Source: Terriglobia bacterium (GTDB taxonomy: Bacteria > Acidobacteriota > Terriglobia > Acidiferrales > UBA7541). Taken from it: DNA of 39,907 nt. The DNA lies in assembly GCA_020072765.1 (NCBI GenBank), contig JAIQGD010000011.1, positions 1 to 39,907 of the forward strand, given 5' to 3'. Both the position numbers and the translations under genes were made by a program. The notes under the pieces were generated by a model. The model had not been told where the DNA came from. It worked only from the letters and a program-made list of their open reading frames with translations, and did no database searches. Position 1 is the first letter of the stretch. The number at the start of each line of letters is the position of its first letter. Positions 967 to 16,803 of this stretch are shown here, piece by piece.

Positions 967-1042
<76 letters not shown>

Positions 1043-1065: not shown

Positions 1066-1404
1066 TTACGCAGTTCTTGCCGACAACTCACTTTGGGTGC
1101 AATTAGGTGCAACAACGGTATCCGAGGTCGGAAGCTCGAAGCCAATTCCCACTTGCTCCGCGACCTTCTTACGGAACGCCACGTCCTCCTTCAACTTGCT
1201 GTAGTCGTCCGTGACGCTCTTATTCGCGTGGCCGAGCCAGAAACGAATCAAGTCTTCTGGCGCGCGTTGCTTCCTCAACCATGTTGCGCGGAACCTCCTG
1301 AATGCGTGGGCACCTGACTTCGGCAGTTTCACTTTCTCAAGAAGTGGATGTAAGGAATCATACGACTCCGGACCTATTGTGCAAGGCGTCGGGATGCTCG
1401 CCAC
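1066..1404 (-). pseudogene. Tyrosine recombinase/integrase, C-terminal relict
   Basis: About 100 residues match the C-terminal catalytic part of a phage-type tyrosine recombinase. HAFRRFRATWLR supplies the H-x-x-R box, FWLGHANKSVTDDY supplies the GH motif and the nucleophilic Tyr, and a VGIGFELP-type tail follows. The N-terminal arm- and core-binding domains and the first catalytic Arg are missing. The open frame starts inside a foreign piece, the signal-peptide gene overlapping at 1358-1480. Its stop lies 24 bases from the tRNA. It is therefore a dead remnant of the enzyme that inserted the island. The exact junction with unrelated sequence, roughly 1340-1400, cannot be fixed by eye. Confidence 0.8.
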
Positions 1405-1658: not shown

Positions 1659-1994
1659 CTACTTCTTGTTGGCCAAGGTCCGGACGAACGAGACGAGCTG
1701 CTTGATCTGATCCTCGGTGAGTTTGTCCTTCTGGGCCGGCATCTTGTTTTTTCCGTTGGTGACGATGCCGATCAAGTCCGCATCCGAGTTCTTCTGCACG
1801 ACGTCGGACCGCAGATCAGGGATGTTCAGCGACTTCCCGACCGGGCCGCTACTGCTGCCGTCGGCCGAATGGCAGATGGAGCACTTCGATTTGAAAAGGT
1901 CGGATGCATCCTGCGCCTGCGCAGGCGAAGTGCAGAGCAAGACGAATCCAGCCATCAGGAATGCAGCGCAAGCGGACCACATAAAATGACGCAT
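1659..1994 (-). CDS. Periplasmic monoheme cytochrome c, 111 aa
   Basis: A small class I-type c cytochrome that would shuttle electrons in the periplasm. A Sec signal peptide (MRHFMWSACAAFLMAGFVLL, cleaved after PAQA) is followed by one haem site, CSICH, and a C-terminal TEDQIKQLVSFVRTL helix typical of cytochrome c6/cbb3-III-like domains. The Met in NGKNKMPAQ is the likely distal ligand. The ATG at 1994 is chosen because GAGGAGG precedes it at good spacing and the signal peptide starts there. Longer upstream extensions have no such signals. It is transcribed divergently from the 16-heme gene, so it may feed electrons to, or share control with, the multiheme cluster. Confidence 0.9.
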   Translation of the reverse strand: MRHFMWSACAAFLMAGFVLLCTSPAQAQDASDLFKSKCSICHSADGSSSGPVGKSLNIPDLRSDVVQKNSDADLIGIVTNGKNKMPAQKDKLTEDQIKQLVSFVRTLANKK

Positions 1995-2411: not shown

Positions 2412-2429
2412 CTGTGACGCTTATCACAG
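2412..2429. promoter_or_regulatory. CRP/FNR-family operator 1
   Basis: CTGTGACGCTTATCACAG is a perfect palindrome in its outer halves (TGTGA-N6-TCACA plus the flanking C/G pair). This is the consensus of CRP-type regulators. It is centred 39 bases from the second site and 91.5 bases upstream of the 16-heme start codon. It also lies upstream of the minus-strand genes. Confidence 0.65.
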
Positions 2430-2450
2430 TAGCGGTAAAGATCTACCAGA

Positions 2451-2468
2451 TTGTGATAATGGTCACAA
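2451..2468. promoter_or_regulatory. CRP/FNR-family operator 2
   Basis: TTGTGATAATGGTCACAA again gives a perfect TGTGA-N6-TCACA with a flanking T/A pair. It ends 43 bases before the 16-heme start codon. GATAAT (2455-2460) inside it resembles a -10 element, so binding here could either block or position RNA polymerase for the plus-strand operon. Confidence 0.65.
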
Positions 2469-2511
2469 GATTTCCTCTCCTCGCTGCGCATAATTTCGCC
2501 CAGAGGCGAGC

Positions 2512-3906
2512 TTGGGAACCCGTACTCTCTTCGTTCTATTGCTACTGGGCTGTTCGGTTGCCGCACAGGGCGGCGAACATCCGGTGCCGCTGTCTGCCGA
2601 TTTTGATCCCGCCAAGTGCGTCGAATGCCACCGAGATCACACGGAGGGAAAGTACGTCCACACGGCAATCACCCTTGGGTGTAACGCTTGCCATGAAGTC
2701 AAAATCGAAGGCGCGGTCACATCGGTCACCACGATCGCCAAGGGCAACGCTCTGTGCGTGAGCTGTCATACAGACAAGGACAAAGCGGAAGCAAAGGGGA
2801 CCCTGCATCCGCCGGTGGCCCAGGATTGCACGAAGTGCCACAGTCCGCACAGCTCGCCGTACAAGTTCCAGTTATTGAAAGAACGCTCCGGCGGGCCCGC
2901 CGAAAACCTTTGTCTCGGCTGCCACGATAAAGGAGTCAACGTCCCCGACAAGGGCAGCCGGCACATCGCGTTGGATATGGGTTGCGATACCTGCCATGTG
3001 ACGCACAAGACCGGCGAGCCGGGGAAGAAGGAATTCGATTTCCACCTCACCAAGTCTCCTCCCGCGCTGTGCCTGGATTGTCACGATGCCAGCGACAAGA
3101 CGTTGAAGGAGGCGCATCACAACCAGCCGTTCGAGAAAGCGGATTGCACCGAATGTCACGATCCGCACCAATCTGCGTCACCCAAGCTGTTACAGAAGTA
3201 TGTCCACTTCCCCTTTGGCGAAAAGATGTGCGAGGTGTGCCACCAGCCGGCCAAGGACGGAAAAGTGGTTCTGAACGAGGACGGCAAGTTCGCGCTCTGT
3301 TACACGTGCCACGACGAGATCAAGAAGGTGGTGGAAACCTCCAAGAACCAGCACCTGGCATTTGCCGTGACCGATCGCTGCACCACGTGCCACAGTCCGC
3401 ACGCGAGCCAGTATCCGCGAATGCTCAAGCAACCGGTGGCCGTGTGCGAACAGTGCCACGAGGATCGCGCCGAGGAGCACCGCACGAAGAAATTCTTGCA
3501 CCAGCCGCCGTTCAAGGACGGCTGCTACATCTGCCACCAGCCACACGGGTCCGAAAATCCCACTCTCTTGCGGGCGGCGCAAGTCAATGACATTTGCCTG
3601 ACGTGTCATAGCATCACCCCGCGCGTCGAAATGAAGCCCGGCTCGGCGACGATGACCCTCTTTTCGAACGTGACCTTGCCGGACGACTACCTGGACTCCG
3701 TCAAGCACATCGACGTGAATTCCAGCGGGAGGGGCCACCCCATCGGCAATCACCCGGTCTCCGGGATGCCCGATCCGTCGAAGCCCGGCAGCGCGATTAA
3801 CTGCATCAGTTGCCACGATCCGCACGCCTCGGACTTCACTAAGAGAATGTTCCGGATGAAGCAGGGGCAGAAGGTCGTGTGCCTGAAATGTCATGGAAAG
3901 CAGTAG
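2512..3906 (+). CDS. Multiheme c-type cytochrome, 16 haem sites, exported
   Basis: A 464-residue exported cytochrome with 16 CXXCH sites spread evenly along the chain. Many are in the doubled form CHxPH (CHSPH, CHDPH, CHQPH), which marks bis-His haem wires such as the cytochrome c3/NrfB-like families. The start is TTG at 2512, after GAGGCGAG. It gives a signal peptide MGTRTLFVLLLLGCSVAA. LLGC resembles a lipobox, so the mature protein may be a lipoprotein; cleavage near AAQ is the alternative. It is the first gene of the plus-strand series and follows two CRP-type sites. It probably carries electrons between the periplasm and the outer-membrane conduit. Its exact side of the membrane is unknown. 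Confidence 0.92.
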   Translation: MGTRTLFVLLLLGCSVAAQGGEHPVPLSADFDPAKCVECHRDHTEGKYVHTAITLGCNACHEVKIEGAVTSVTTIAKGNALCVSCHTDKDKAEAKGTLHPPVAQDCTKCHSPHSSPYKFQLLKERSGGPAENLCLGCHDKGVNVPDKGSRHIALDMGCDTCHVTHKTGEPGKKEFDFHLTKSPPALCLDCHDASDKTLKEAHHNQPFEKADCTECHDPHQSASPKLLQKYVHFPFGEKMCEVCHQPAKDGKVVLNEDGKFALCYTCHDEIKKVVETSKNQHLAFAVTDRCTTCHSPHASQYPRMLKQPVAVCEQCHEDRAEEHRTKKFLHQPPFKDGCYICHQPHGSENPTLLRAAQVNDICLTCHSITPRVEMKPGSATMTLFSNVTLPDDYLDSVKHIDVNSSGRGHPIGNHPVSGMPDPSKPGSAINCISCHDPHASDFTKRMFRMKQGQKVVCLKCHGKQ

Positions 3907-3919
3907 AGGAGTGTCCGCC

Positions 3920-5038
3920 ATGAAAGAGACGAGATGGTTTCGGTGGGTCGCGCTGGCGCTGGTGAGTGTGACGCTGGCGGGATCACCGGTCTGCGCAGCC
4001 GACAAGAAGAAGACGACAAAGCCGGTTGTGGACATCAACCGCGTCTGGCCACCACCTCCGCAGAAGGCGCACTTCAAGCTGCTGCAAATCATCAATGGGG
4101 AAGGCGACGTGGTCGGAAAGAAAAAGGTCAGCCTGTTGTCGCGCATCGTGGCGGACGAGTCGGCTCCCAGCTACATTCATTTCAGCCGCCCCTATGCTCT
4201 AGCGGGGGATCGTCACGGCAAGCTGTATGTCACCGACACGCAATTATCCTCCCTTTTTGTCATTGATCCCAAGGACCGCAGCTTCAAGGTATTTGGAGCG
4301 GATGCCGACGTGCAACTCAAGCTGCCGTTGGCGGTTACGGTGGATAGCGACGACCGGGTGTGGGTTGCCGACGGCGCTATGAAGAGCGTGCTCTGCTACA
4401 GCTCGGATGAAAAGCTGCTGTTGCAGTTCGGCAGCGACCCGGGGACGCCCGCGGCGCCCGTTCCCACGCTGGAGCGGCCCACCGGCGTGGCCTTGGACGA
4501 ACGCCGGCAGCGCGTCTATGTCTCCGATGCCAAGCTGAACAAGATTTTCGTTTTCACGACGAGCGGAAAATTCGTCAAGCAACTCGGCAAGGGCGGTTTT
4601 GAGCCCGGGGAGTTCTTCTTTCCCGGCCAGTTGCTGGTGGATTCCAGCGGCCGGCTGTACGTCGTGGACACCCAGAACGCGCGCGTGCAGATCTTCGACC
4701 CGGACTTCAACGTCCTCAAGGTCATTGGCAAGCGTGGCGATGGCATCGGCGCTTTTGCCCGGCCCAAGAGCATCGCGCTGGATAGCCAGGGCCATCTCTA
4801 CGTGAGCGATGCCTGGTGGCACAACATCCAGATCTTTGGACACGATCCCCGCGTGAAGGATCCCAACGAACTCTCGGTGTTGCTCTTTATTGGAGAGGGC
4901 GGGACCAGGCCGGGCGATTTTCAGGGCCCCGCCGGCATTTATATCAATTCGTACGATCAAGTTTTTGTCGCCGACCAAATGAACAGCCGCATTCAGGTTT
5001 TTCAGTTTCTGGGCGGAGACGAAGAGCAGAAGAAGTAG
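3920..5038 (+). CDS. Exported NHL-repeat six-bladed beta-propeller protein (first copy)
   Basis: 372 residues. A Sec signal peptide (MKETRWFRWVALALVSVTLA, cleaved near VCAA) is followed by the WPPPPQKAHFKLL entry motif and about six NHL-type blades. These repeat units such as GVALDERRQRVYVSDAKLNKIFVF and LVDSSGRLYVVDTQNARVQIF. NHL propellers are non-enzymatic binding platforms. ATG 3920 is chosen over the in-frame ATG 3893 because AGAGGA precedes it and the signal peptide begins there. It starts 13 bases after the 16-heme gene and ends 77 bases before the tetraheme gene. From its company I infer a periplasmic or surface factor for cytochrome or filament assembly. A paralogue lies at 9166-10218. 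Confidence 0.9.
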   Translation: MKETRWFRWVALALVSVTLAGSPVCAADKKKTTKPVVDINRVWPPPPQKAHFKLLQIINGEGDVVGKKKVSLLSRIVADESAPSYIHFSRPYALAGDRHGKLYVTDTQLSSLFVIDPKDRSFKVFGADADVQLKLPLAVTVDSDDRVWVADGAMKSVLCYSSDEKLLLQFGSDPGTPAAPVPTLERPTGVALDERRQRVYVSDAKLNKIFVFTTSGKFVKQLGKGGFEPGEFFFPGQLLVDSSGRLYVVDTQNARVQIFDPDFNVLKVIGKRGDGIGAFARPKSIALDSQGHLYVSDAWWHNIQIFGHDPRVKDPNELSVLLFIGEGGTRPGDFQGPAGIYINSYDQVFVADQMNSRIQVFQFLGGDEEQKK

Positions 5039-5115
5039 GAGAAGTAGAAACAGTCCAAGGCAAGGTCTTTCTCGGAGCTTGCCGGCGACAACATACATCA
5101 GGAGGAAAGGGAACC

Positions 5116-5925
5116 ATGAGAAAGCAATTCTTCTTAGTTCTTGTTGGTTTGTTGTTTTGTAGCGTGTCGCTGTGGGCCCAGGATGGCAGCAAAGACGCGA
5201 TCCTCACCACGGCGCACGACTTTACCGATGCCGCGAACATTACCAAGTACGGCGTGGACATGACCGGCGAGAATGTCCCTCAGGTCTGCGCGTATTGCCA
5301 TATTCCGCACGCCGACATGTCGAACCAAAGCCCCGCCAAGACGCTGTTGTGGAATCACGTCATCCCCGCAACGACAACGTACAAGGTCTATTCCAGCCCC
5401 TCGCTGAAGGCCACACCAACCGCCCTCAACACAGGCGATGCCACGCAACTGGGAGGCGAAGCCTTCTATTCGCTGGCTTGCTTGAGCTGCCATGACGGTT
5501 CCACGGCCATCAACGCGGTTTACCGTGTTCCCGACGGCGTCACCCTGACGGGCAGTACCACGATGGGTGCGATTCCTGGAGACGGTGTGATGCATTTGAT
5601 CGGCCAGAACGCGGATCTCAGCCAGTCCCATCCGGTGAATTTCACCTACGACGCCGCTTTGGTCGCAGCCGACACCGGCATCTGGGACGTGGGTACCGGG
5701 GCGAATATCCGGTCACTCGGGACCAGCATGATCAAGGCCGTGCGTCCTACCAACACGCTCGATGCTTCCGGCGCACTCCAACAACCCCTGTTGTTTAACA
5801 ACACGGTCCAATGCGCAAGTTGCCACAATCCCCACAGCGACACCAACGGGCCTTACCTGCGCACGTCGGTCGTAAACAGTCAGCTGTGCTTCAAGTGCCA
5901 CAGCACCTCAGCAACATATAACTAA
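5116..5925 (+). CDS. Tetraheme c-type cytochrome, OmcE-like filament subunit candidate
   Basis: 269 residues: a signal peptide (MRKQFFLVLVGLLFCSVSLW, cleaved after WAQ) and four haem sites, CAYCH, CLSCH, CASCH and CFKCH. The order AHDF, CHIPH, LLWNH, YKVYSS, CLSCHDGS, SHPVNF, CHNPH and LCFKCH matches, as I recall it, the OmcE-like tetraheme cytochromes that polymerise into extracellular wires. Six His outside the CXXCH sites are available as distal ligands, one more than two per haem pair needs. That fits bis-His ligation and possible sharing of a ligand between subunits. The ribosome site GGAGGAAAGG is the strongest in the cluster, and a 12-bp stem-loop follows the stop. Both suit a highly expressed structural subunit. 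Filament formation is inferred. Confidence 0.88.
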   Translation: MRKQFFLVLVGLLFCSVSLWAQDGSKDAILTTAHDFTDAANITKYGVDMTGENVPQVCAYCHIPHADMSNQSPAKTLLWNHVIPATTTYKVYSSPSLKATPTALNTGDATQLGGEAFYSLACLSCHDGSTAINAVYRVPDGVTLTGSTTMGAIPGDGVMHLIGQNADLSQSHPVNFTYDAALVAADTGIWDVGTGANIRSLGTSMIKAVRPTNTLDASGALQQPLLFNNTVQCASCHNPHSDTNGPYLRTSVVNSQLCFKCHSTSATYN

Positions 5926-5941
5926 CCCTAACTTCACTTCG

Positions 5942-5972
5942 CTGGAGCGGCCGTCTTTGGCGGCCGCTCCAG
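5942..5972 (+). promoter_or_regulatory. Intercistronic stem-loop after the tetraheme gene
   Basis: A perfect 12-bp GC-rich stem (5942-5953 with 5961-5972) with a 7-base loop lies 17 bases past the tetraheme stop and just before the ppiC ribosome site. There is no T-run, so read-through is likely. Such hairpins often protect the upstream message from 3' decay or partly attenuate transcription. Here that would raise the tetraheme subunit over the downstream assembly proteins. Confidence 0.6.
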
Positions 5973-5987
5973 GAAGGAGCTATCGCG

Positions 5988-6941
5988 ATGAGAGTATTGA
6001 TCGTATGGATGTTGTGCTGCACCGTGGTGGTGGGCGCCGGCACGGCCAGCCTGCCGCAATTGCCTGCCCAGCAGGTGGTCGCCCGCGTCAATGGGGTGGA
6101 GCTGCGCGGCGCCGCCTTGAATGACTACGTGCAGGCAGTCTTCCCTGATTTCTCTTTTCACGGCAAAATCCAGCCCGAGAAGCTCAACGTGTATCGCCGG
6201 GCGGCGCTGGACCGCATGGTGCTGCATGAATTGATTTACCAGGAAGGCGTGCGGCGGAGGATTGCCGTACCGCCCGCGAAAATCGATGCCGAAGTGGCGC
6301 TCATGCGGGGCCGGTTCCGTTCCCCCGAGGCCTTCGAGCACTCCCTGTCGGAGCACGGTCTGACCCTGGACCAGTTGCGCGCCCACATTCGACGCAGCAT
6401 GGTGATCGCGGCTGTGGTCCGTCGCGATGTCACCGCACGTGCGGTGGTGACCGACCAGGAAGTCCACGCCTACTACCAGAAGAATTTGCCGCGCTTTCAC
6501 GAGCCCGAAGTCGTCCACGTGCGCGAGATCTCCATCCCGCCGGGTCCGCTGGCGGCCAAGCAAGCCGGCGACGTGCGCGCCCAGGCCGCCGCCAAGAACA
6601 CCAGCGCCCAATTCGATCTACTGGCTTCCCGCTACTCGAAAGATGATTACCGCGTGATGGGCGGCGACCTCGGCTGGGTCCATCGCGGCGGTATGGACCC
6701 GGAATTAGAGAAGACCGTCTTTGCCCTCCGCCTAGGTCAACTCAGTCCGGTGATTGAGACGAAGACGGGATTTTATCTCCTCCGGGTGGAAGGCAAGCGG
6801 CCGGCGCGGCTGGTGCCCTTCACTGAGATGAGAGGCAAGATTCGCAGCCAACTGATCGCCGAGAAGAGGAAGCAGCTGAGTGAGGCTTTGCGTGCGCGGG
6901 TTGCCAAAGATGCCAAGGTGGAGCTCCTGGCCAAGTTTTAG
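5988..6941 (+). CDS. Periplasmic PpiC/SurA-like peptidyl-prolyl isomerase
   Basis: 317 residues: a signal sequence (MRVLIVWMLCCTVVVGAGTA), a SurA-type N-terminal helical chaperone region (about 30-170; VARVNGVELRGAALNDYV then LDRMVLHELIYQEGV) and one parvulin domain (about 172-270). The latter is recognised by VVHVREISIP, FDLLASRYSKD, GGDLGWVHRGGMDPELE and TKTGFYLLRVE. Proteins of this kind hold and fold outer-membrane beta-barrels and exported proteins. AAGGAGC precedes the ATG. It sits directly before the beta-barrel gene, whose ATG touches this stop codon, so it is probably the dedicated folding factor for the barrel and perhaps the cytochromes. Confidence 0.92.
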   Translation: MRVLIVWMLCCTVVVGAGTASLPQLPAQQVVARVNGVELRGAALNDYVQAVFPDFSFHGKIQPEKLNVYRRAALDRMVLHELIYQEGVRRRIAVPPAKIDAEVALMRGRFRSPEAFEHSLSEHGLTLDQLRAHIRRSMVIAAVVRRDVTARAVVTDQEVHAYYQKNLPRFHEPEVVHVREISIPPGPLAAKQAGDVRAQAAAKNTSAQFDLLASRYSKDDYRVMGGDLGWVHRGGMDPELEKTVFALRLGQLSPVIETKTGFYLLRVEGKRPARLVPFTEMRGKIRSQLIAEKRKQLSEALRARVAKDAKVELLAKF

Positions 6942-8996
6942 ATGGTCGCCAAATGCCAATTCGGCAGAGCACGAGCCTGGTTGCTGGCCGCTTTTCTGGT
7001 CGCGCCATGCGCCGGGCGCGCGCGGGCCCAGAACGCCCCCGGAAATCTCCCCTGGGGCGCGGCGCCTTCCAGTAACGCGCCCACCACCCAGCAAACAAAT
7101 GAGCAGGGCGGCAGACACCTGGCACCCGCCCTTGCCGGCGAGATGTTCCGCCATCTTTACGGCGCCGCCTATTTCGGATTCGACAGCACGGGTTCTGACT
7201 CCAGCCGGACGAGCACCGACGATTATGGCTTCAATCTGAATAGTAGCGGGTATTTGCTGGACCCGCGTCTGTGGACCCAGGTGATGAGCGTGGACTTCGA
7301 CCACCTCGGTGGAGGTTCCGGCGGTGCATCGCGGAATCTGGGCTTCCATCTCAATGGAACGCTGCTGCGCAGCCGGTCGTTTCCCCTGCGCGTCATCGTG
7401 GTCCGCCGCATGGCCGATGCGAACTCCTTGGGAGTCGAGAACCACAGCAACTATGACAGCCTGACCCTGGACTGGGCGCTGCGCCAACCCAAACTGGCCA
7501 ATATCGGCATCTCCGCGACGTTCGGGGGAAGCTCGCAGGAGACCTCGCAGAGTATGCCCTTTCCCGTGGTGCCCTTTCGGGAGAGGGATCAAAGCCTCAA
7601 CGGCCAAATCACTCGTATCATCCGAGGCTGGTCCCTCATGGGATCGGCCTACCGTGTGCGCATGCACACTTCGCAGCAGGATCTCCGGGAGGAGATCGGC
7701 GGACGCCACTTTCAAGTGGAGCGGCGCTTGCGCGTGGGCGAGAAGGGATACTTCCAGACTTCTCTGCGGCACGACCAGCGCAGCGATTCCCGGCGCAGCA
7801 GCAATCTGAGTTTCACGGCCCCCTCCACGAGCATTTTGCTGAATCGGGCGCAGGCCACCTTCGGGTATCAGCACACAAAGAAGTTCCGGGGCTCTTACAG
7901 CGCTGGCTATACGAGCAACCTCAGTGAGGCGGCCATTTCTTCGGCGTTACTGTCCTCGACCGGTGCGGGAGCAGGCTCGCCCGTACAGCTGGATCCCGGC
8001 CTGAGCCAGGCGCTCGCCTTGCGTCACACAAGTTCGTCGCTGGGCATCAATGGGGGCTGGACCTACAACGTGACACCCCGCTTGTTCTTTGGCGGAAGTG
8101 TGGGCCAAACGTTTCTGAACTCCCCCGACCGCCTCTTCAGTATTCCTGTCGCCAACAATCAAATCGGCTTGCTGAAGTCCTACACCAGCCTCGGCGGAAG
8201 TTTCGGCTACCAGCGAAACTTTGGCAAGTGGGACACGAGCTGGCGCGGCAGCCTGACGCACGATTGGGATTATCGCCGGCGGGGCCCTGCATTTGGAGAG
8301 GATTCGCGGTCGTTCGGAGTGGACGTGAGCCGGGGTTTTCGTGGCTGGGTGTGGACCTCCGATCTTTCCTATACCGACTTCGTGAGCGGGCAGACCGGGG
8401 CTCGGCTGTATAGCGAGGAACGCTGGGTGAACACCCTGAAGACGCACCTGAATCCTCGGCTTACGCTCGATTTGGGAGCCGAGATCCTGCATCTGGATAC
8501 GAATCTCACGTCTTTGCTGCTGCGTAACCCGAGTAGCGGCACGGCGCTGTTGCGTGACACGAGCAGGGACACGGCGCTGCTGCTGCATGGAGCCCTGTCC
8601 AGCCGGCGCTGGAACGTGGCTGGTGGCTCGGGGTTGCGTAATGCGAACTCGATGGCCCTCGCCTTGGACGTCACCAATCCGCTGAATACCATCTTGCTCA
8701 GCCAGTTCACGCCGCTCGCCAACACCCTGGCCACCGCCGATCATTATGCCGAGGTATTCGGCAGTTATACTCCGCGGCACAATTTGAGCTTCAACGGCGC
8801 CTATCGGCGCGACAACTTCCGGATCCTGGAGGCCGATCTGAGCCGCTATAGCGGCATGGAATTCGGCGTCGAATATCACCTGCGGAAATTGACGGTCGAG
8901 GGCGGCTATCAACGACAACACCAGCAGACGGGAAAGGCGAAGTACGGCCGTGACCGCTTCTATGTGCGCATCCGGCGGCCCTTCCGGATCTACTAG
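6942..8996 (+). CDS. Outer-membrane beta-barrel protein, porin of a porin-cytochrome conduit
   Basis: 684 residues with a signal peptide cleaved near RARA (residue 29) and no haem sites. From about residue 60 onward the chain alternates short amphipathic strands with Gly/Asn/Ser turns (for example FFGGSVGQTFLNSPDRLF, SLGGSFGYQRNF and WRGSLTHDWDY). It ends in FYVRIRRPFRIY, with a C-terminal aromatic residue, the usual outer-membrane insertion signal. Length and context fit the large barrels that sheath multiheme cytochromes in porin-cytochrome complexes of Geobacter type. Sequence similarity to a named family is not claimed. The ATG abuts the ppiC stop, so the two are translationally coupled. 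Confidence 0.85.
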   Translation: MVAKCQFGRARAWLLAAFLVAPCAGRARAQNAPGNLPWGAAPSSNAPTTQQTNEQGGRHLAPALAGEMFRHLYGAAYFGFDSTGSDSSRTSTDDYGFNLNSSGYLLDPRLWTQVMSVDFDHLGGGSGGASRNLGFHLNGTLLRSRSFPLRVIVVRRMADANSLGVENHSNYDSLTLDWALRQPKLANIGISATFGGSSQETSQSMPFPVVPFRERDQSLNGQITRIIRGWSLMGSAYRVRMHTSQQDLREEIGGRHFQVERRLRVGEKGYFQTSLRHDQRSDSRRSSNLSFTAPSTSILLNRAQATFGYQHTKKFRGSYSAGYTSNLSEAAISSALLSSTGAGAGSPVQLDPGLSQALALRHTSSSLGINGGWTYNVTPRLFFGGSVGQTFLNSPDRLFSIPVANNQIGLLKSYTSLGGSFGYQRNFGKWDTSWRGSLTHDWDYRRRGPAFGEDSRSFGVDVSRGFRGWVWTSDLSYTDFVSGQTGARLYSEERWVNTLKTHLNPRLTLDLGAEILHLDTNLTSLLLRNPSSGTALLRDTSRDTALLLHGALSSRRWNVAGGSGLRNANSMALALDVTNPLNTILLSQFTPLANTLATADHYAEVFGSYTPRHNLSFNGAYRRDNFRILEADLSRYSGMEFGVEYHLRKLTVEGGYQRQHQQTGKAKYGRDRFYVRIRRPFRIY

Positions 8997-9165
8997 CCCG
9001 GATTCTCTTGCACTGCCGATAGGCGTACCAATCGCCATTGTGAGTGGAGCGCTCGCCGTTTCAGGCTTCGAGATCCTGCATACATTTGGGCGCTCGGAAC
9101 GGTCGGTTTCAGTAGAATGGAACAGCGCCGCGCCACTGGAGCGGCTGGTTCACGGGACGAATTGC

Positions 9166-10218
9166 ATGCGGCTCTCACGGTCTTTGAGATCACACGTACT
9201 CAAATTTCTGCTTGCCGTGGCATTGTTGGACTGGCTCAGTGCCCGCCCTTCGCAAGCCCAGGTATGGCCTTCGGCTCCCGATACTCCACGCATCCGCTAC
9301 GAAGGAAGTTTCCGCAAACTGGATGACGGCGCGAAGCGCGCCTCGTTCTGGCACCGGCTGTTGAATGTCATGGTGGGTGCACCACCGAACTACAGCATGG
9401 TCCGGCCGTTTGGCATCAGCACGGATCCGCAAGGGCGCATTATCGTTGTGGACACGGAACAACGCATGGTTCATGTGCTGGACTACGCTCGCCACCGCTA
9501 TCTGCATCTGGCCGGCAATTCCAAGGAACGCTTCGTTTCGCCGATTGGCGTGGCGCTGGACGAGCACGGCGATATCTTCGTCACGGATTCTTATTTGGGA
9601 AAGATCTTCGCGTTTCGGCCCAATGGCAAGTTCTGGCGCTTGCTCGGCGATGTGCGCGGGGAAGGAATGTTCAAGCGTCCCACGGGGCTGGCCTACGATT
9701 CGCAGCGCCATGTTTTTTACTTGACCGACACCTTGCGCGACAAAATCTTTGTTCTCGATCCGGAGGGGCGCGTGTTGCGCAGCTTCGGCGAACGCGGCAC
9801 CGAACCCGGACACTTCAACTATCCCGTGGCGATCGCCTTATACTACGACTCCCTGTACGTGGTTGACGCGATGAATTTTCGCGTTCAAGTCTTGGACTTG
9901 AAAGGGACTCCCCTGACGCAGTTCGGAATGCCCGGTGACGGCTCGGGTAGTTTTGCAAAACCAAAGAGCGTCGCGCTGGATTCCGAAGGCCACGTCTACG
10001 TGGTGGATTCCTTGTTCGAAGTGGTGCAAGTGTTCGACCGCAACGGACGTTTCCTTCTGGCGTTCGGCGGCACCGGAACGGGCCCCGGCCAATTCGAACT
10101 GCCCACCGGAATTTATATCGATCCGGCCGACCGAGTTTACGTCTCCGATTCGTTCAATAGCCGGGTGCAGGTCTTCCAGTATCTGAAGGCCGCCCCGGAT
10201 GAGCCGGGGGAACAGTGA
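9166..10218 (+). CDS. Exported NHL-repeat beta-propeller protein (second copy)
   Basis: 350 residues, paralogous to the protein at 3920-5038. Both have a VWP-x-P entry motif, the same blade pattern and endings SRIQVFQFL and SRVQVFQYL. The ATG at 9166 gives the signal peptide MRLSRSLRSHVLKFLLAVAL, cleaved after SQAQ. Upstream in-frame starts would place the signal inside the protein. Blades such as GVALDEHGDIFVTDSYLGKIFAF and SVALDSEGHVYVVDSLFEVVQVF are clear. A 169-base gap separates it from the barrel gene, and its TGA overlaps the ATG of the 12-heme gene. Each propeller gene therefore directly precedes a cytochrome gene of the same module type, which suggests a matched assembly or binding partner. 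Confidence 0.9.
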   Translation: MRLSRSLRSHVLKFLLAVALLDWLSARPSQAQVWPSAPDTPRIRYEGSFRKLDDGAKRASFWHRLLNVMVGAPPNYSMVRPFGISTDPQGRIIVVDTEQRMVHVLDYARHRYLHLAGNSKERFVSPIGVALDEHGDIFVTDSYLGKIFAFRPNGKFWRLLGDVRGEGMFKRPTGLAYDSQRHVFYLTDTLRDKIFVLDPEGRVLRSFGERGTEPGHFNYPVAIALYYDSLYVVDAMNFRVQVLDLKGTPLTQFGMPGDGSGSFAKPKSVALDSEGHVYVVDSLFEVVQVFDRNGRFLLAFGGTGTGPGQFELPTGIYIDPADRVYVSDSFNSRVQVFQYLKAAPDEPGEQ

Positions 10219-12212
10219 TGGGGCGCCTCCGCTTGTACGGTTTGGTGTTCTGGGTCATTTGCGCGACCACGCTGCTGTTTGCTCAGGACAACGGCAAGCA
10301 ATATATTCTAGATTCCTCGCACAATCTGTCGGTTTCGGGGCCCGGGCCCGTCAAGGCATCCACGGAAACACAAGTCTGCATTTTTTGTCACACGCCCCAT
10401 AGTGCGAGTCCAGCTGCCGGTTTGTGGAACCACGTAGGATCGGCGGTGACTTATCAGGTTTATAGCAGCACGACCATGAATGCGCCCACGGGCGTGCCCA
10501 CACAAGCTTCCAAGCTTTGCTTGAGCTGTCATGACGGGACCATCGGGCTGGGCCAGACCGTGGGCAACGGGAACATCAATGTGGCCGACACCAGCGGGAC
10601 ACTGCTGGACCCGGATACGAGTTTCTCTTCGACAGCCTCGCCAAATCTGGGCGGCGCGTCGGGGAGTGAATTGCTGAATGATCACCCGTTCTCGTTCGCC
10701 CCCATTCAGGATGGTTTGCTCGTCGCCGGCGTGACCAACAGCCCTCCCAACCCTTCCGTCCCGGAAGTTCAGTTGCGGAATGGCGCCATCGAGTGCATCA
10801 GTTGCCACGAGCCGCACCGCCAGGATCTGGATGCCATCACCCGGAAATTCCTGGTGGGCAGCAACGTGGGTGGAAGACTTTGTCTGGCTTGTCATCAGCA
10901 GTCCCTGGCCAACAATTATTGGAATCTGGCTTCGCACAATACATCCGCCAAAACAACTCCCACGGTTCCCGCCAGTAGCTGGGCCGGGTATGGAACCGTC
11001 GCGGGTGACTCCTGCATGGCCTGCCACGCGACGCATTCGGCTACCGTGAACCAGCGGCTGTTGCGGGCTCAGGAGGAAAACACCTGTTTCCTGTGTCACG
11101 GCAGCAGCAACACCATCGCAAGCTACAATATCCAGGCGGAATTCAACAAAGTCGGCAGCGTTGCGGGAGTCATCAAGTACGCGCACCCCACCGTTGCGGT
11201 TACGCCGAGTGTTCATGACCCTGCCGAGCTTCCACCGCCCATCAATGGCTATCCGAGAGCCACCGCTCCGGCCATGCCGGAAACCAGTCCGGGGCAGCCA
11301 CGCCATGCCGAGTGCGTGGATTGTCACAATCCCCACGCTGCCAATGCAACCGGGGCCGCTGCTATCCCCCCGGCGGTGCCCTCAAACATGAATAGTGTTA
11401 CGGGTGTCAGCGGTACCGCGACCGATGGCCGCACGCCGGTCACGCCGGCGGCGTATGAGTACCAAATCTGCTTCGTTTGCCATGGCGACAGCGCCAACAA
11501 GCCCCAAAACACCAGTTATTCCGATTACGGGCGTACCGTTTTCCGGCAGACGTATGCGACGGTCAGCGATCCATTCAATGAACGTTTGGATTTCGCCTCG
11601 ACCGCTTCCAGGCACAACGTCACTCAGGCCCGAGCGGCCATCTCGGTTCCCAGCCTGCGGAATTACATCCTCAACCTCGACGGCAGCACGGGACGTTTCC
11701 TGGGATCTGGCACCTACATCTACTGCGCGGATTGCCACAACAACGACCAGGCGCGCGGTTCCAAGGGCCCCGGGCCGAACGGCCCTCATGGCAGTATCTG
11801 GTCGCATCTGCTGGAACGCCGGTACGACGTGGAAGGCCCGCCATCGGTTCCAGGCGCCAACGATGGGCAGACGGTGAACTCGGGAACCGTTGCCCCGGGG
11901 ATCGCCACCACCAATTATGCCCTGTGCGACAAATGCCACGATGTCGCTGCGCTTCTGACCGATGCGACCTTCAAGCACAGCGTACATGTCATCGGTGCGG
12001 GAGCCTCTTGCTCGACGTGCCACGCCGGTCACGGCATCCAGCAGCAGGTTGCGACGAATGGCAACACGAACAATCGGCTGTTGGATCCCGATACGAAGAT
12101 TGTGGGTCCCGTCCCTTCGGGCACCTATGCGGGTTGGCTGGTGATGAATACGAACACGCGGACCTGCTATCTGCAATGCCACGGAACCACACACACCGGG
12201 TCAACCTACTGA
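10218..12212 (+). CDS. Multiheme c-type cytochrome, 12 haem sites, with N-terminal tetraheme module
   Basis: 664 residues: signal peptide (MGRLRLYGLVFWVICATTLL, cleaved after FAQ), 11 CXXCH sites and one CXXXCH (C650-Y-L-Q-C-H655). Residues about 30-230 repeat the tetraheme protein's order: SHN, CIFCHTPH, LWNH, YQVYSS, CLSCHDGT, DHPFSF, CISCHEPH, LCLACH. Eight further haems follow, in a part rich in Ala, Thr and Pro linkers. Stop and start overlap as TGATG with the propeller gene, so ATG 10218 is preferred to the GTG three bases earlier. It is the last gene of the series. I infer a surface or filament-associated terminal cytochrome. Alternatively it is the extracellular partner of the barrel. 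Confidence 0.9.
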   Translation: MGRLRLYGLVFWVICATTLLFAQDNGKQYILDSSHNLSVSGPGPVKASTETQVCIFCHTPHSASPAAGLWNHVGSAVTYQVYSSTTMNAPTGVPTQASKLCLSCHDGTIGLGQTVGNGNINVADTSGTLLDPDTSFSSTASPNLGGASGSELLNDHPFSFAPIQDGLLVAGVTNSPPNPSVPEVQLRNGAIECISCHEPHRQDLDAITRKFLVGSNVGGRLCLACHQQSLANNYWNLASHNTSAKTTPTVPASSWAGYGTVAGDSCMACHATHSATVNQRLLRAQEENTCFLCHGSSNTIASYNIQAEFNKVGSVAGVIKYAHPTVAVTPSVHDPAELPPPINGYPRATAPAMPETSPGQPRHAECVDCHNPHAANATGAAAIPPAVPSNMNSVTGVSGTATDGRTPVTPAAYEYQICFVCHGDSANKPQNTSYSDYGRTVFRQTYATVSDPFNERLDFASTASRHNVTQARAAISVPSLRNYILNLDGSTGRFLGSGTYIYCADCHNNDQARGSKGPGPNGPHGSIWSHLLERRYDVEGPPSVPGANDGQTVNSGTVAPGIATTNYALCDKCHDVAALLTDATFKHSVHVIGAGASCSTCHAGHGIQQQVATNGNTNNRLLDPDTKIVGPVPSGTYAGWLVMNTNTRTCYLQCHGTTHTGSTY

Positions 12213-12723: not shown

Positions 12724-12773
12724 TCGGCTGTTAGCCGAAGGGTTGCCAGTTCGAATCTAGCCCGGGGAGCCAT
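12724..12773 (+). repeat. Right attachment repeat (attR), displaced tRNA-Asn 3' half
   Basis: This copy matches 993-1042 at 48 of 50 positions, including the anticodon loop, T arm and CCA. There is no 5' half, so it is not a tRNA gene. One of the two changes (12747, T to C) breaks a T-stem pair, as expected for the displaced, unselected copy. It marks the right border of the island. Confidence 0.8.
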
Positions 12774-13191
12774 ATCAGGTTACGCGCGGGATGGAGTTGC
12801 ACAGCGTTTACCGCGGGCACGATCGCGGAGGGATTGGCTCGCGACAGACCGGCTGCCAGCGACGGGCCAACCCTTGGCGCTTGGTCCAATGAGGTTGCCC
12901 GGTCGCGCTGCCACACGCAAATAAACCTGCAGATCCTTGTCCCACGCAATTTCCTGGCAGGTCGCTGCGCAGGGTTCCGCTTCATCGGAAAGAAGCCCGG
13001 CAGGAGCATGTCTAACCGCACCATTAGTTGCTGTAAGAGATAATGAGCGTTTTTTAGTGTCCGCGCGAAATTGGCTTGCGAGGGCGCGGCATCGCCTGTC
13101 AAATAGTGGTAGTGGCTTGGGATCACGCTCTGCTTGCTTTAAGGCCGGGTGGTGGCTGCGGTGGAGGCCTGCCGGGACACGGGGTCGCGCG
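12774..13191. other. Region between island border and the histidine kinase
   Basis: The frame of the kinase stays open back to 12937, but the stretch before 13192 reads as low-quality protein (Arg/Ser/Ala-rich, no domain) and contains no good ribosome site. I treat it as intergenic, probably holding the kinase promoter. No clear -35/-10 or sigma54 (-24/-12) element could be identified. Confidence 0.45.
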
Positions 13192-15447
13192 TTGAGCATT
13201 GCCGAACAGAACAAGGGCACACAGGAACTCCTCCACAGTCCGGCGTACCTGGCCGGGGTCGTCGAATCGGCGGCCTATGCCATTCTCGCCATCGATGCGC
13301 ACGAAAAAATCGTGTTGTTCAATGGGGCGGCGGAAGCGATGTTCCGCTGCTCGGCCGCACAAGCGCTGGGCCAGTCCTGCACGCAGTTTCTTCCCGAAGC
13401 TCTTTGCGATCAACACCGCGCCTGGGTGCGCGGCGTTGGCGACGGCACGGCGGCACCGCGGCAGATGGAGCCCTTGAATGAAGTGGCCGGCGTGCGAGCC
13501 GATGGCAGCCGGTTCCTGGCCGAAGCTTCGATTTTGAGGAGCACCGCTGACGGCGAGCGTTACCTCACGGCTCTCCTGCGGGACGTTACGGCACGCCATC
13601 AGGCCCTGGAGAGCATCCGCGCGAGTGAGGAGCTGCTGCGCAGCCTGTATAAGTCTCTTCCCGTTCCCACCTATTCCTGGCAGTGGCGGGAGGGAGATTT
13701 TGTGCTGGTGGGTTTCAGCGACACGGCCGAAATAGTCGCGGGAGGGAGCCTTTCCGGCCTCTTAAATGCCAAAATCGGCCACATTTTTGCGCATTCCGCG
13801 GACATCGCGGCCGACCTGCGCCAGTGCCATGCGGAGAAGCGCACCATTCACCGGAAATGCGTCTACAACTTTTTGCCGACGGGGCGCAACGCGGATATTG
13901 ACGCCACGTACGTGTTCGTCCCCCCGGACACGGTGCTGGCTCACGCCTACGACGTCACCGAGCAACGGGAAAATGAGCAGGCGCTGATCAAGTTGTCCAG
14001 CGTGGCGGAACAGACCGCGGACGCGGTCATCATTACGAACCGGGACGGCGTGATCGAATACGTCAACCCGGCGTTCGAGAATTTGACGGGCTATCGCAGC
14101 GGGGAAATGGTGGGGCACAAGCCCAACGTGCTGAAGTCGGGAAAAGTGGCCCAGGAATATTTTGAAGAACTGTGGCAGACGATTCTGGCGGGGAAGGCCT
14201 TCCGCGGGTTGTTCCTGAATCGCAAGAAGAACGGGGACCTGTTCTATGAAGAGAAGACCATCTCGCCTCTGAAAAACGCGCGGGGGGAGATCACGCATTT
14301 TATTTCGGTCGGACGGGACAAGACCGCACAGATGCAAGCCAGCGAAGAGGAGAGGCGGCTCCGGGCGGCGCTGGAAAATGCCGCGCGGGAGTGGAGGCTC
14401 ACGTTCGATGCCGTCGAATCGGCCATTCTGCTTACCGACGTCGAGGGTTCAATCCGGCGGCTCAACCGGCCGGCCAGCGTGCTGCTGAATCTGGGTTTTG
14501 AGGCGGCGATCGGATGCCGGATATCGCAATTTTGCCCGTCGGAACCCTGGCAGACCGTGCAGACGGTCATGGCGGAAGCCCGCGAATGGCGCCAGGCCTC
14601 TTCCCGGCAAATTCGAGATGCGCGGAGCGGCAAGAGCTGGCAGGTGACCGTCAGCCGGTTTGTGGATCCGGCGATGGAGCGGGAACAAATGATCGTGACG
14701 CTGCGGGACGTCAGCGCCACGGTCGAGCTGCAGGAGTCGCTGCGCCGCAGCGAAACGCTGTCGGCGATGGGCACGTTGGTGGCGGGCGTCGCGCACGAGG
14801 TGCGCAATCCGCTGTTCAGCATTTCGGCGACGATGGACGCGTTCGAGGCGCGCTTTGGGGTGCAGCCGGAATACGTGGAATACCGGAGGGTGTTGCGGCA
14901 GGAACTGAACCGCATGACCGGTCTGATGCAGGAGCTGCTCGACTACGGCAAGCCAGCCGTCCTCCACCTGGTGGATACCGAGGCCAGCGCGCTGGTGAAT
15001 CATGCGGTGGAAGCGTGCGCCCATCTGGCCGGCAAATACAATATCGAAATCCGCAAGGTGCTGGCCCCGGATTTGCCCATGGTCCGCGTGGATGCCCAGC
15101 GCATGGCCGAGGTGTTTCGCAACGTGATTGAGAATGCGATTCAGCATTCGCCCAAAGGCAGCAAAGTGACCATCGAGGTGCGGTCCCTCCGCGAGGTACA
15201 TCAGGCGTGGATCGAGTGCGCGGTGCGGGACAGCGGTCCGGGTTTTGACCTGGAGGACTTGCCGCGGCTGTTCGAGCCTTTTTTCACGCGGCGGCGCGGC
15301 GGAACGGGCCTGGGCCTGGCCATCGCCGAGCGCGCCATCGAACAGCACGGGGGCAAGATCGTGGCGCGCAATCATCCGGAGGGTGGCGCGGAGATGGTGA
15401 TTCGCTTGCAAGCCTTGGCGGGCGATTCGAGTTCCCGGGAGGCCTGA
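13192..15447 (+). CDS. Multi-PAS sensor histidine kinase, NtrB/AtoS-like
   Basis: 751 residues from the TTG chosen at 13192 (SIAEQNKGTQELL follows). No membrane segments are seen, so it is cytosolic. Four PAS-type regions are visible at about 15-135, 145-255, 270-380 (clearest: DAVIITNRDGVIEYVNPAFENLTGY) and 398-510. Then come a HisKA domain with phosphoacceptor His535 (AGVAHEVRNPL) and a HATPase domain (N-box NVIENAIQHSPKG, G1 DSGPGF, F-box FEPFFTRR, G2 GTGLGL). The next gene, four bases downstream, is its probable cognate sigma54 activator. The ligand is unknown. The start is uncertain because the upstream frame is open and no start has a strong ribosome site. Confidence 0.88.
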   Translation: MSIAEQNKGTQELLHSPAYLAGVVESAAYAILAIDAHEKIVLFNGAAEAMFRCSAAQALGQSCTQFLPEALCDQHRAWVRGVGDGTAAPRQMEPLNEVAGVRADGSRFLAEASILRSTADGERYLTALLRDVTARHQALESIRASEELLRSLYKSLPVPTYSWQWREGDFVLVGFSDTAEIVAGGSLSGLLNAKIGHIFAHSADIAADLRQCHAEKRTIHRKCVYNFLPTGRNADIDATYVFVPPDTVLAHAYDVTEQRENEQALIKLSSVAEQTADAVIITNRDGVIEYVNPAFENLTGYRSGEMVGHKPNVLKSGKVAQEYFEELWQTILAGKAFRGLFLNRKKNGDLFYEEKTISPLKNARGEITHFISVGRDKTAQMQASEEERRLRAALENAAREWRLTFDAVESAILLTDVEGSIRRLNRPASVLLNLGFEAAIGCRISQFCPSEPWQTVQTVMAEAREWRQASSRQIRDARSGKSWQVTVSRFVDPAMEREQMIVTLRDVSATVELQESLRRSETLSAMGTLVAGVAHEVRNPLFSISATMDAFEARFGVQPEYVEYRRVLRQELNRMTGLMQELLDYGKPAVLHLVDTEASALVNHAVEACAHLAGKYNIEIRKVLAPDLPMVRVDAQRMAEVFRNVIENAIQHSPKGSKVTIEVRSLREVHQAWIECAVRDSGPGFDLEDLPRLFEPFFTRRRGGTGLGLAIAERAIEQHGGKIVARNHPEGGAEMVIRLQALAGDSSSREA

Positions 15448-15450: not shown

Positions 15451-16803
15451 TTGGCGAGAAACCGCATCTTGCTGGTGGATGACGAAGCCGGAATCCGCTT
15501 CGCGGTCGGAGAATTCCTGAAGGCCCACGAGCAGGAGGTGCGCCTGGCCGAGTCCTGCGCGGAAGGCGAGAAGGTGCTGCGCTCCTGGAGGGCGGATATC
15601 GTCCTGTGTGATTACGTGTTGGCCGATGGGAACGCGTTGGAATTGCTGCCCCGGTTGAAAGCCATCGACCCCTACGTTTCGGTCGTTCTCCTGACGGGCC
15701 AAGGGAGCATCGAACTGGCGGTGCAGGCGATCAAGAACGGCGCCGAACAATTTCTGACCAAGCCGGTGGAGTTGCCGGCACTGCTGGTGGTGCTGGAGCG
15801 GCTGTGCGAGCAGCGGCAGAACCGCCAGCGGCAGATGGCCACGCAGTCCAAGGAGTCGCGCTCGGCGGTGGATCCGTTCGTGGGAGCCGATCCGCAGATC
15901 AAGCGTCTGCGGGAAATCGTGGAGCGCGTGGCGGCGTCGGATAGCCCGCTGCTGATTCAGGGGGAGACGGGAACGGGCAAGAGCGTGCTGGCGTCGTGGA
16001 TTCACGAGCACGGTCCGAGGGCCAAGGAAGCGTTTGTGGATTTGAACTGCGCGGGATTGTCGCAGGAACTACTGGAGACGGAGCTGTTTGGGCACCAGAA
16101 GGGCGCGTTTACCGGGGCCATGAGCAATAAGGTGGGCCTGCTGGAGGTGGCGCACCGCGGCACGGTGTTTCTGGACGAGATCGGCGACGTGGACCCGGCC
16201 GTGCAGCCCAAGCTGCTCAAGGTGGTCGAGGAGAAGCGCTTTCGCCGGCTGGGCGACGTGCAGGATTGTTCGGTGGACGTGCGGCTGATCGCTGCCACGC
16301 ATCGGGATTTGGCGGCCCGCGTGCGCCAGGGATTGTTCCGCGACGACCTCTATTTCCGCATCAGCACGATTCCGATTCGCGTGCCGTCCCTGCGCGAACG
16401 GCGCGGAGACGTTCCCGCGCTGGTGCAGCAGATTCTGGATGGTTTCGCCGGGCGCTACGGGCGCAAGGGAATTGCGCTGGCCGCGGACGCGATGGGCGCG
16501 CTGCAAGCCTACGATTGGCCGGGAAACATCCGGGAAATGCGGAATGTGCTGGAGCGCGCCGTCCTGTTGACGGAAGAGAACGTGATTACCCGGCAGGACC
16601 TGCATTTCGAACAGCCCGGCCAGGAAGGCGGCGCGGCGTTCGACCCCTCGCTCTCTCTGGCGCAGGTGGAAAAGCAGCACATCACGCGGGTGCTGCAATG
16701 GGCGGGCGGACAGGTGGACCAGGCGGCCAAACAGCTGGACATGCCCCGCAGCACGCTCTACCACAAGATCAAACAGCACGGGATCGTTCTGTCTAAATTC
16801 TAG
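15451..16803 (+). CDS. NtrC-family sigma54-dependent response regulator
   Basis: 450 residues: a receiver domain with phosphoacceptor Asp54 (VLCDYVLADG), an AAA+ domain with Walker A GETGTGKS (171-178), the sigma54-contact loop GAFTGA (218-223) and Walker B VFLDEIGD. A Fis-type helix-turn-helix near the C-terminus reads VDQAAKQLDMPRSTLYHKIKQHGI. All parts needed for activating sigma54 promoters are intact. The start is TTG at 15451 with GGGAGG upstream, three bases after the kinase stop, so the pair is co-translated. Its targets are unknown. I searched the nearby intergenic regions by eye for TGGCAC-N5-TTGC and found no convincing site. Confidence 0.93.
   Translation: MARNRILLVDDEAGIRFAVGEFLKAHEQEVRLAESCAEGEKVLRSWRADIVLCDYVLADGNALELLPRLKAIDPYVSVVLLTGQGSIELAVQAIKNGAEQFLTKPVELPALLVVLERLCEQRQNRQRQMATQSKESRSAVDPFVGADPQIKRLREIVERVAASDSPLLIQGETGTGKSVLASWIHEHGPRAKEAFVDLNCAGLSQELLETELFGHQKGAFTGAMSNKVGLLEVAHRGTVFLDEIGDVDPAVQPKLLKVVEEKRFRRLGDVQDCSVDVRLIAATHRDLAARVRQGLFRDDLYFRISTIPIRVPSLRERRGDVPALVQQILDGFAGRYGRKGIALAADAMGALQAYDWPGNIREMRNVLERAVLLTEENVITRQDLHFEQPGQEGGAAFDPSLSLAQVEKQHITRVLQWAGGQVDQAAKQLDMPRSTLYHKIKQHGIVLSKF

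What the first reader, a model, noticed from the sequence alone, without database searches (positions are those of the whole stretch)
2512..12212. Candidate cytochrome-nanowire and outer-membrane conduit system
The order 16-heme, NHL propeller, tetraheme, PpiC, beta-barrel, NHL propeller, 12-heme combines an OmcE-like tetraheme subunit with a folding factor, a barrel and two large cytochromes. The parts fit a filament, its assembly apparatus and the porin-cytochrome conduit in one locus of a likely acidobacterium. The family pattern of the tetraheme protein (CHIPH, LLWNH, CLSCHDGS, SHPVNF, CHNPH) is recalled from filament-forming cytochromes; the system as a whole is inference.
Basis: partly seen in the sequence, partly recalled or inferred. 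Interest (0 to 1): 0.85.

Follow-up and report, generated by a model that had tools for sequence, protein, structure and literature searches.

The report
OmcE-type cytochrome nanowire gene island
A soil acidobacterium carries, on a piece of foreign-looking DNA inserted at a tRNA gene, a complete gene set for an OmcE-type 'electric wire' made of haem proteins, including a large haem protein that contains a copy of the wire's own building block and may be the plug that joins the wire to the cell.

Summary
In detail: seven co-directional genes (2512-12212) encode a 16-haem cytochrome, NHL propeller, tetrahaem, PpiC isomerase, outer-membrane barrel, NHL propeller and 12-haem cytochrome. The tetrahaem (true start 5116) is a full-length homologue of the filament-forming OmcE (PDB 7tfs, E 9e-26), with four haem motifs and four distal histidines invariant in 33 relatives. 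The barrel is predicted with 28 strands. That it polymerises remains inference.

(1) Residues 18-228 of the 12-haem protein are themselves a complete OmcE-like domain (7tfs, E 9e-21). Most such domains form one clade separate from filament-type subunits, and in several genomes the domain is a separate gene. I propose that it is the adaptor joining filament to conduit. (2) Sampled neighbourhoods show this module in about a dozen phyla. (3) Here it sits on an 11.7-kb island at tRNA-Asn (50-nt repeats 993-1042 and 12724-12773, integrase remnant); the filament gene is absent from 19 congeners. Two perfect TGTGA-N6-TCACA sites precede the operon.

Filament-plus-conduit clusters (osc/Oet, OmcS-based) are known, so this is a new variant of a known kind. 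The anchoring hypothesis is the valuable part.

The parts
967..1041 (+). tRNA-Asn (gtt), insertion site of the island
   Evidence: ARAGORN
993..1042 (+). left att-like repeat (3' end of tRNA-Asn)
   Evidence: 50-nt direct repeat, 96% identical to 12724-12773
1066..1404 (-). tyrosine-recombinase remnant (C-terminal catalytic part only)
   Evidence: PF00589 E 2.6e-4, profile positions 126-169 of 172, below the curated cut-off; motif HAFRRFR...GHANKSVTDDYSK
1659..1994 (-). small monohaem cytochrome c, divergent from the operon
   Evidence: PF13442 E 6.5e-13
2413..2428 (+). perfect TGTGA-N6-TCACA (Crp/Fnr-type) site
   Evidence: only two sites with up to 1 mismatch in the window, both perfect; function inferred
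2452..2467 (+). second perfect TGTGA-N6-TCACA site
2512..3906 (+). 16-haem cytochrome, MtrA/DmsE-like, putative periplasmic input
   Evidence: 16 CxxCH; 6r2q_A (MtrA position in the Mtr complex) E 6e-12; TIGR03508 168 bits, below its cut-off of 192
3893..5038 (+). NHL beta-propeller 1, signal sequence by eye
   Evidence: PF01436 E 1.6e-29
5116..5925 (+). OmcE-family tetrahaem cytochrome, putative filament subunit
   Evidence: 7tfs E 9.1e-26 over residues 11-263; 8 haem-ligand His invariant in 33 sequences
5988..6941 (+). PpiC/SurA-type periplasmic prolyl isomerase
   Evidence: PF13145 E 4.4e-20, SurA_N_3 E 2.1e-11
6942..8996 (+). outer-membrane beta-barrel, about 28 strands, no plug domain found
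   Evidence: AlphaFold2 pLDDT 64, signal helix 6-20, 28 strands; outer-membrane proteins as Foldseek matches, including MtrB 6r2q_B
9166..10218 (+). NHL beta-propeller 2 (frame open from 8950, likely start near 9166)
   Evidence: PF01436 E 6.6e-26
10215..12212 (+). 12-haem cytochrome: N-terminal OmcE-like tetrahaem domain (residues 18-228) plus C-terminal 8-haem part; proposed filament adaptor
   Evidence: 7tfs E 9.3e-21; invariant haem motifs and H36, H62, H157, H201 in 26 sequences
12724..12773 (+). right att-like repeat; preceding 100 bp shared with other islands in two congeners
12937..15447 (+). PAS sensor histidine kinase (outside the repeat); possible regulator
   Evidence: Pfam PAS/HisKA/HATPase; HK-RR pairs beside several homologous cassettes
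15451..16803 (+). sigma-54-activating response regulator
   Evidence: PF00158 E 5.5e-63

Best explanation
The locus is a horizontally acquired cassette that builds an OmcE-type cytochrome filament and wires it to the cell. Proposed working: the subunits are exported by Sec and receive haem in the periplasm; PpiC and the two propellers hold or fold them; the 28-strand barrel lets cytochrome through or across the outer membrane; electrons pass from the MtrA-like 16-haem protein to the 8-haem part of the 12-haem protein and leave through its OmcE-like N-terminal domain. That domain would act as the 'zeroth subunit', because it keeps the four OmcE-type haems and all four distal histidines, including the N-terminal HNLS histidine. 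The tetrahaem polymer would grow on it. Shown: the homologies, the domain fusion, its separation from filament-type subunits in a tree, conservation of the gene set, and the island. Inferred: export, polymerisation, docking, topology and direction of electron flow.
For: Tetrahaem: 7tfs E 9e-26 and a second solved tetrahaem, 9yuq, E 3e-9; exactly four invariant non-CxxCH histidines matching four haems. 12-haem: N-terminal 210 residues match 7tfs at E 9e-21; all 12 haem motifs invariant in 26 sequences from about a dozen phyla. In a domain tree 68 of 75 such N-domains group together (support 0.96), and the only 6 tetrahaems inside that clade are split-out versions beside a 7-haem gene. Linkage: of 46 tetrahaem loci in the phylum sample 45 have a propeller and 36 a fused or split 12-haem gene nearby; of 72 from other genomes, 68 and 50 (contigs are truncated, so these are lower bounds). 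In the order, 17 of 95 genomes have the family, and nearly all pair a short frame with a longer one (mostly 596-1077 aa). Barrel. Precedent: filament plus porin-cytochrome clusters in Desulfobacterota (PMC10553843) and the osc operon with folding and secretion proteins (PMC13194489).
Against: No structure supports polymerisation: the tetrahaem model has pLDDT 47. The inter-subunit histidine of OmcE was not located by a tool here; equating it with the N-terminal HD/HN histidine is inference. The 12-haem protein has no lipobox by eye and no OmcA/MtrC-type match, so its outer-surface location is unproven. The barrel model is moderate (pLDDT 64), and TonB receptors score as well as MtrB. Physiological roles of such filaments are disputed even in Geobacter (PMC11077965, abstract). 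The integrase is a fragment, no empty site was found, and the locus could be silent.
Confidence: 0.5

Rival explanations
1. The OmcE-like filament and its cassette are real, but the 12-haem protein is not an adaptor. It is the extracellular terminal cytochrome of an ordinary porin-cytochrome conduit, and the shared domain reflects only common ancestry; barrel plus 16-haem plus 12-haem work like Mtr/Ext, and filaments attach elsewhere or not at all.
For: The Ext conduits of Geobacter also combine a barrel, a 5-haem and a 12-haem cytochrome (PMC6148476), and many homologous cassettes hold a 5-haem gene beside the barrel. The 16-haem protein resembles MtrA.
Against: The N-domain keeps every OmcE haem and ligand, including the N-terminal histidine, across distant phyla, and is a tetrahaem gene of its own in some genomes, which fits interaction with the filament better than drift.
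Confidence: 0.27
2. The barrel, propellers, PpiC and 12-haem protein are mainly a secretion and assembly machine for the filament, like the proposed OscE/F/G/H functions, and do not carry current across the membrane; electrons reach the filament by the genome's separate DmsE/GSU2204-like conduit on contig C114.
For: Roles assigned to osc proteins in folding and secretion (PMC13194489); a separate decahaem plus large predicted barrel locus exists in the same genome; a FimD usher is among the VIA-align matches.
Against: A dedicated assembly factor need not have 12 strictly conserved haems, and the MtrA-like 16-haem gene is in the same operon.
Confidence: 0.25
3. The tetrahaem does not polymerise; all the cytochromes are periplasmic or surface-bound electron stores.
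For: No filament was shown; the folding prediction is uninformative.
Against: Full-length homology to a cytochrome solved as a filament with identical ligand positions.
Confidence: 0.2
4. The locus is a decaying passenger of a defective island and is not expressed.
For: Integrase truncated; none of the 19 congeners has the filament gene.
Against: All seven frames are intact, all haem motifs are kept, and two perfect Crp-type sites precede the operon.
Confidence: 0.08

Closest known systems
OmcE filament of Geobacter sulfurreducens (PDB 7tfs)
   Same: tetrahaem, full-length homology (E 9e-26), four distal histidines in the same places, NHL propeller beside the gene also in the Geobacter-like loci L178-L181
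   Different: 269 aa against 232, with a longer loop between the third distal His and haem 3; in the Geobacter-like loci no PpiC and no 12-haem gene was seen within the fetched neighbourhood
osc operon (omcS companion) and OetABI cassette of Desulfobacterota (PMC13194489, PMC10553843, PMC5539420)
   Same: one cluster with filament cytochrome, propeller, prolyl isomerase, outer-membrane barrel and two large cytochromes
ExtABCD / ExtEFG conduits of Geobacter (PMC6148476)
   Same: barrel plus a 12-haem cytochrome, with a 5-haem one in many of the homologous cassettes
   Different: ExtC and ExtD are lipoproteins; no filament gene in those clusters; homology not tested
MtrCAB
   Same: MtrA-like multihaem plus a large barrel; mobility of the genes is known (PMC8805035)
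   Different: no MtrC-type protein; barrel not recognisably MtrB by sequence

Membership tests
OmcE-type filament cytochrome | full-length sequence homology to OmcE | tested here: met
   7tfs E 9.1e-26, residues 11-263
OmcE-type filament cytochrome | four c-haems with bis-histidine ligands at conserved places | tested here: met
   4 CxxCH plus H34, H65, H172, H240 invariant in 33 sequences
OmcE-type filament cytochrome | OmcE fold | tested here: inconclusive
   AlphaFold model pLDDT 47, no haems, shallow alignment
OmcE-type filament cytochrome | polymerises, haem ligated by a histidine of the next subunit, extracellular | not testable with these tools
   needs cryo-EM or biochemistry
porin-cytochrome conduit (Mtr/Pcc/Ext) | large outer-membrane beta-barrel | tested here: met
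   28 predicted strands, outer-membrane proteins as best fold matches
porin-cytochrome conduit (Mtr/Pcc/Ext) | periplasmic MtrA-like multihaem cytochrome | tested here: inconclusive
   6r2q_A E 6e-12 over about 130 residues; TIGR03508 below cut-off
porin-cytochrome conduit (Mtr/Pcc/Ext) | surface lipoprotein cytochrome of OmcA/MtrC type | tested here: inconclusive
   the 12-haem protein shows no lipobox by eye and no OmcA/MtrC-type match; no dedicated lipoprotein predictor was run
osc/Oet filament-and-conduit cassette | filament cytochrome is OmcS-type hexahaem | tested here: not met
   tetrahaem OmcE type; so it works like, but is not filed as, an osc/Oet cassette
osc/Oet filament-and-conduit cassette | propeller, prolyl isomerase, barrel and large cytochromes in one cluster | tested here: met
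tRNA-integrated genomic island | tRNA gene with 3'-end direct repeat at the far end | tested here: met
   993-1042 and 12724-12773, 96%
tRNA-integrated genomic island | intact integrase | tested here: not met
   only a 112-aa C-terminal remnant, PF00589 E 2.6e-4; so an island scar, not an intact mobile element
tRNA-integrated genomic island | empty site in relatives | tested here: inconclusive
   left flank conserved in congeners; right flank not found beside the tRNA in any

The most novel reading that the evidence does not exclude
The 12-haem protein is the base piece of OmcE-type nanowires: a conduit cytochrome fused to a permanently anchored 'subunit zero', kept across about a dozen phyla, that nucleates the filament and gives an unbroken haem path from periplasm to wire; in this lineage the whole wire-plus-socket kit is carried on tRNA-Asn islands and can be gained as one unit.
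Probability: 0.35. Interest if true: 0.87.

Novelty: new variant of a known kind. Interest (0 to 1): 0.66.

Why it matters
How cytochrome filaments are secreted and anchored in the outer membrane is described as speculative even for Geobacter (PMC12307469). A protein that contains both the filament's building block and a conduit-sized haem array, next to a barrel and the filament gene in many phyla, turns that question into a direct experiment. It also suggests that wire and socket move between bacteria as one cassette, and gives a marker (the 12-haem protein, better conserved than the filament protein in the alignments made here) for finding OmcE-type wires in genomes.

Tried and rejected
AlphaFold of the tetrahaem (33 sequences) gave pLDDT 47, so no fold search was made with it. 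The barrel fold search does not separate MtrB from TonB receptors. The sigma-54 promoter scan gave 19 matches against 21.6 expected, so no evidence of sigma-54 control. The idea that the contig was binned into the wrong genome was rejected: its first 1050 bases match 12 or more congeners at 71-84%. The plasmid collection had no match to the 12-haem protein. The papers on OmcE (PMC9357133) and on nanowire ubiquity (PMC10330847) are not held, so novelty against them could not be checked. Crp-type sites are not conserved upstream of the cassette in other genomes. Whether ExtD/ExtG or OetA/OetB are homologous to the 12-haem protein could not be tested, because named Geobacter sequences were out of reach; Geobacter-like genomes do hold a split homologue (4-haem plus 7-haem genes, NHL, PpiC) at another locus, which from memory may be the omcG/omcH region. 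An empty insertion site was sought and not found.
Full report
WHAT IS THERE. The window is one whole 39,907-base contig (C25) of a 3.78-Mb assembly, 96.6% complete. Same-phylum contigs found by search have the same lengths as named Acidobacteriota records (G339:C113 and JACQDB010000008, 26,150 bases; G207:C32 and JAADFN010000032, 55,892), and a same-family contig equals a 'Terriglobia bacterium' record (G732:C53 and JAIQEV010000016, 64,960). Corrections: the tetrahaem starts at 5116; the twelfth haem motif of the last protein is CX3CH; NHL2 probably starts near 9166.

THE TETRAHAEM. It matches OmcE (7tfs) end to end at E 9e-26 and a second solved tetrahaem cytochrome, 9yuq, at E 3e-9. In an alignment of 33 relatives the only invariant histidines are the four of CxxCH and four others (H34, H65, H172, H240), exactly what four bis-histidine haems need. 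OmcE and OmcS filaments have one haem per subunit ligated by a histidine of the neighbour (PMC12307469). Which histidine that is in OmcE was not established here.

THE 12-HAEM PROTEIN. Its first 228 residues match OmcE at E 9e-21 and nothing else in the PDB set reached E 0.01. It keeps the OmcE pattern (HNLS, CIFCHTPH, CLSCHDG, NDHP, CISCHEPH, CLACH), and all twelve haem motifs are invariant in 26 homologues. Most of these N-domains (68 of 75) form one clade apart from filament-type subunits (support 0.96); the six tetrahaems inside that clade come from genomes where the protein is split into a 4-haem and a 7-haem gene (L038, L040, L041, L057, L059, L077). Seven fused proteins fall outside the clade, so the separation is not perfect. 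A protein joining an OmcE-like domain to an 8-haem part, encoded beside an outer-membrane barrel and the filament gene, is best read as the piece where wire meets conduit. This is inference; the alternative is shared ancestry without docking.

THE BARREL. No Pfam or NCBIfam hit. Homologues at the same position fall into one similarity cluster of 58 sequences, and 61% of the positional candidates end in F, W or Y against 15% of background frames. AlphaFold2 with nine sequences gives a signal helix and 28 strands (pLDDT 64); the Foldseek matches shown are outer-membrane barrels, among them MtrB of the Mtr complex (6r2q_B). The fold does not tell conduit from secretion pore.

THE 16-HAEM PROTEIN. 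It resembles the first chain of the Mtr complex entry (6r2q_A; titled oddly in the table but in the MtrA position) at E 6e-12 and the DmsE family below cut-off. It is the natural candidate for periplasmic input.

CONSERVATION. In 396 genomes of the phylum, 52 have the tetrahaem family. Neighbourhoods show the order multihaem - NHL - tetrahaem - (PpiC) - barrel - NHL - 12-haem again and again; L068, L234 and L235 repeat the window's order with a 16-haem first gene. In other phyla (Bacteroidota, Chlorobiota, Calditrichota, Gammaproteobacteria, Planctomycetota, Verrucomicrobiota, Nitrospirota, Desulfobacterota, Campylobacterota, Gemmatimonadota, Zixibacteria, Poribacteria, by record titles) the PpiC slot is often a 5-haem gene. 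Of 118 tetrahaem loci, 113 have a propeller and 86 a fused or split 12-haem gene nearby; contig ends make these lower bounds. The set came from a search for the tetrahaem, capped at 80 loci, so it is a sample, not a census.

THE ISLAND. tRNA-Asn lies at 967-1041; its 3' half is repeated at 12724-12773 (48 of 50 identical). Between them lie a tyrosine-recombinase remnant, a monohaem cytochrome and the cassette. GC is 58.9% inside, 64.8% to the left and 62.9% to the right. The left flank is conserved in congeners. The barrel was not found in the other 94 genomes of the order, 19 congeners included, and the tetrahaem in none of the 19 congeners but in 16 other genomes of the order. The 100 bp before the right repeat occur, with the repeat, at several places in congener G764 and once in G772, so tRNA-Asn is a hot spot for a family of such elements. 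A Bacteroidota cassette (L129) also lies between tRNA-Pro and a copy of its 3' end plus terminator, 15 kb apart. Against: the integrase is truncated and no empty site was found. Mobility of extracellular electron transfer genes as such is known for mtrCAB (PMC8805035).

REGULATION. Two perfect TGTGA-N6-TCACA sites lie 39 bases apart just upstream of the operon and are the only ones in the window even with one mismatch allowed. The fetched loci hold 11 perfect sites in 2.25 Mb, one of them about 80 bases upstream of the decahaem gene of the genome's other multihaem cluster on C114 (L236, 10541). A Crp/Fnr-type control is likely but untested. A PAS kinase and a sigma-54 activator follow the right repeat; homologous pairs stand beside several other cassettes, and the kinase's DNA closely matches only two other genomes of the family, both of which carry the cassette.

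COMPARISON. Filament plus conduit in one cluster is a published idea: OetABI with OmcS/OmcX (PMC10553843), the osc operon (PMC13194489, reporting Shen et al. 2025), and the four-gene core of propeller, isomerase and 16- and 26-haem cytochromes (PMC5539420). The present set works like those but uses an OmcE-type subunit and an OmcE-domain fusion that none of the passages read mentions; the OmcE and 'ubiquity' papers could not be read. Hence 'new variant of a known kind'.

SHOWN versus INFERRED. Shown by computation: gene content, homologies, domain fusion and its near-separate clade, conserved linkage, repeats and island, predicted barrel. Inferred: export, polymerisation, docking of the 12-haem N-domain, direction of electron flow, regulation, recent transfer.

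Noticed in passing
window 993-12773: 11.7-kb island at tRNA-Asn with att-like repeats and an integrase remnant; absent from the 19 congeners judged by barrel and tetrahaem.
   Followed up: partly
L225 (G764:C96) 883-5350; also G764 C3, C339, C67: Array of several tRNA-Asn 3'-end fragments, each with the same 100-bp left neighbour carrying TTGGGTGCA repeats: a family of small tandem elements at one tRNA gene, one unit with an ATPase-like frame.
   Followed up: partly
L129 5166-20385: Bacteroidota cassette, close to dnaA, between tRNA-Pro and a copy of its 3' end plus terminator; no integrase seen.
   Followed up: partly
window 17365-27793: Chemotaxis-like cluster (CheA, CheB twice, CheR, response regulators) with a methyl-accepting protein that begins with a bacterial globin domain (23035-25029), possibly an oxygen or haem-based sensor next to the cytochrome island.
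   Followed up: no
window 2413-2467; L236 10541: Perfect Crp-type palindromes upstream of both multihaem clusters examined in this genome.
   Followed up: partly
L236 (G000:C114:60000-76000): Second multihaem cluster in the genome: DmsE-type decahaem, 954-aa frame weakly similar to GSU2204, cytochrome b, NrfD, 9- and 8-haem cytochromes; likely the native electron conduit.
   Followed up: partly
window 28268-34782: Glycosyltransferases and an FkbM-type methyltransferase; OmcE filaments are glycosylated (from memory), so a link is possible but untested.
   Followed up: no
L075, L081, L089, L108, L110, L116, L141: Histidine kinases with one CxxCH motif paired with sigma-54 regulators beside homologous cassettes, perhaps haem-based redox sensors.
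   Followed up: no
L196-L201 (Geobacter-like genomes): Split homologue of the 12-haem protein (4-haem plus 7-haem genes) with NHL and, in most, PpiC next to tRNA-Asp/Val genes, away from omcE.
   Followed up: partly
PDB 9yuq: A 2026-copy PDB entry called 'putative multiheme cytochrome c', 218 aa, 16 chains, is a second solved relative of the tetrahaem.
   Followed up: no
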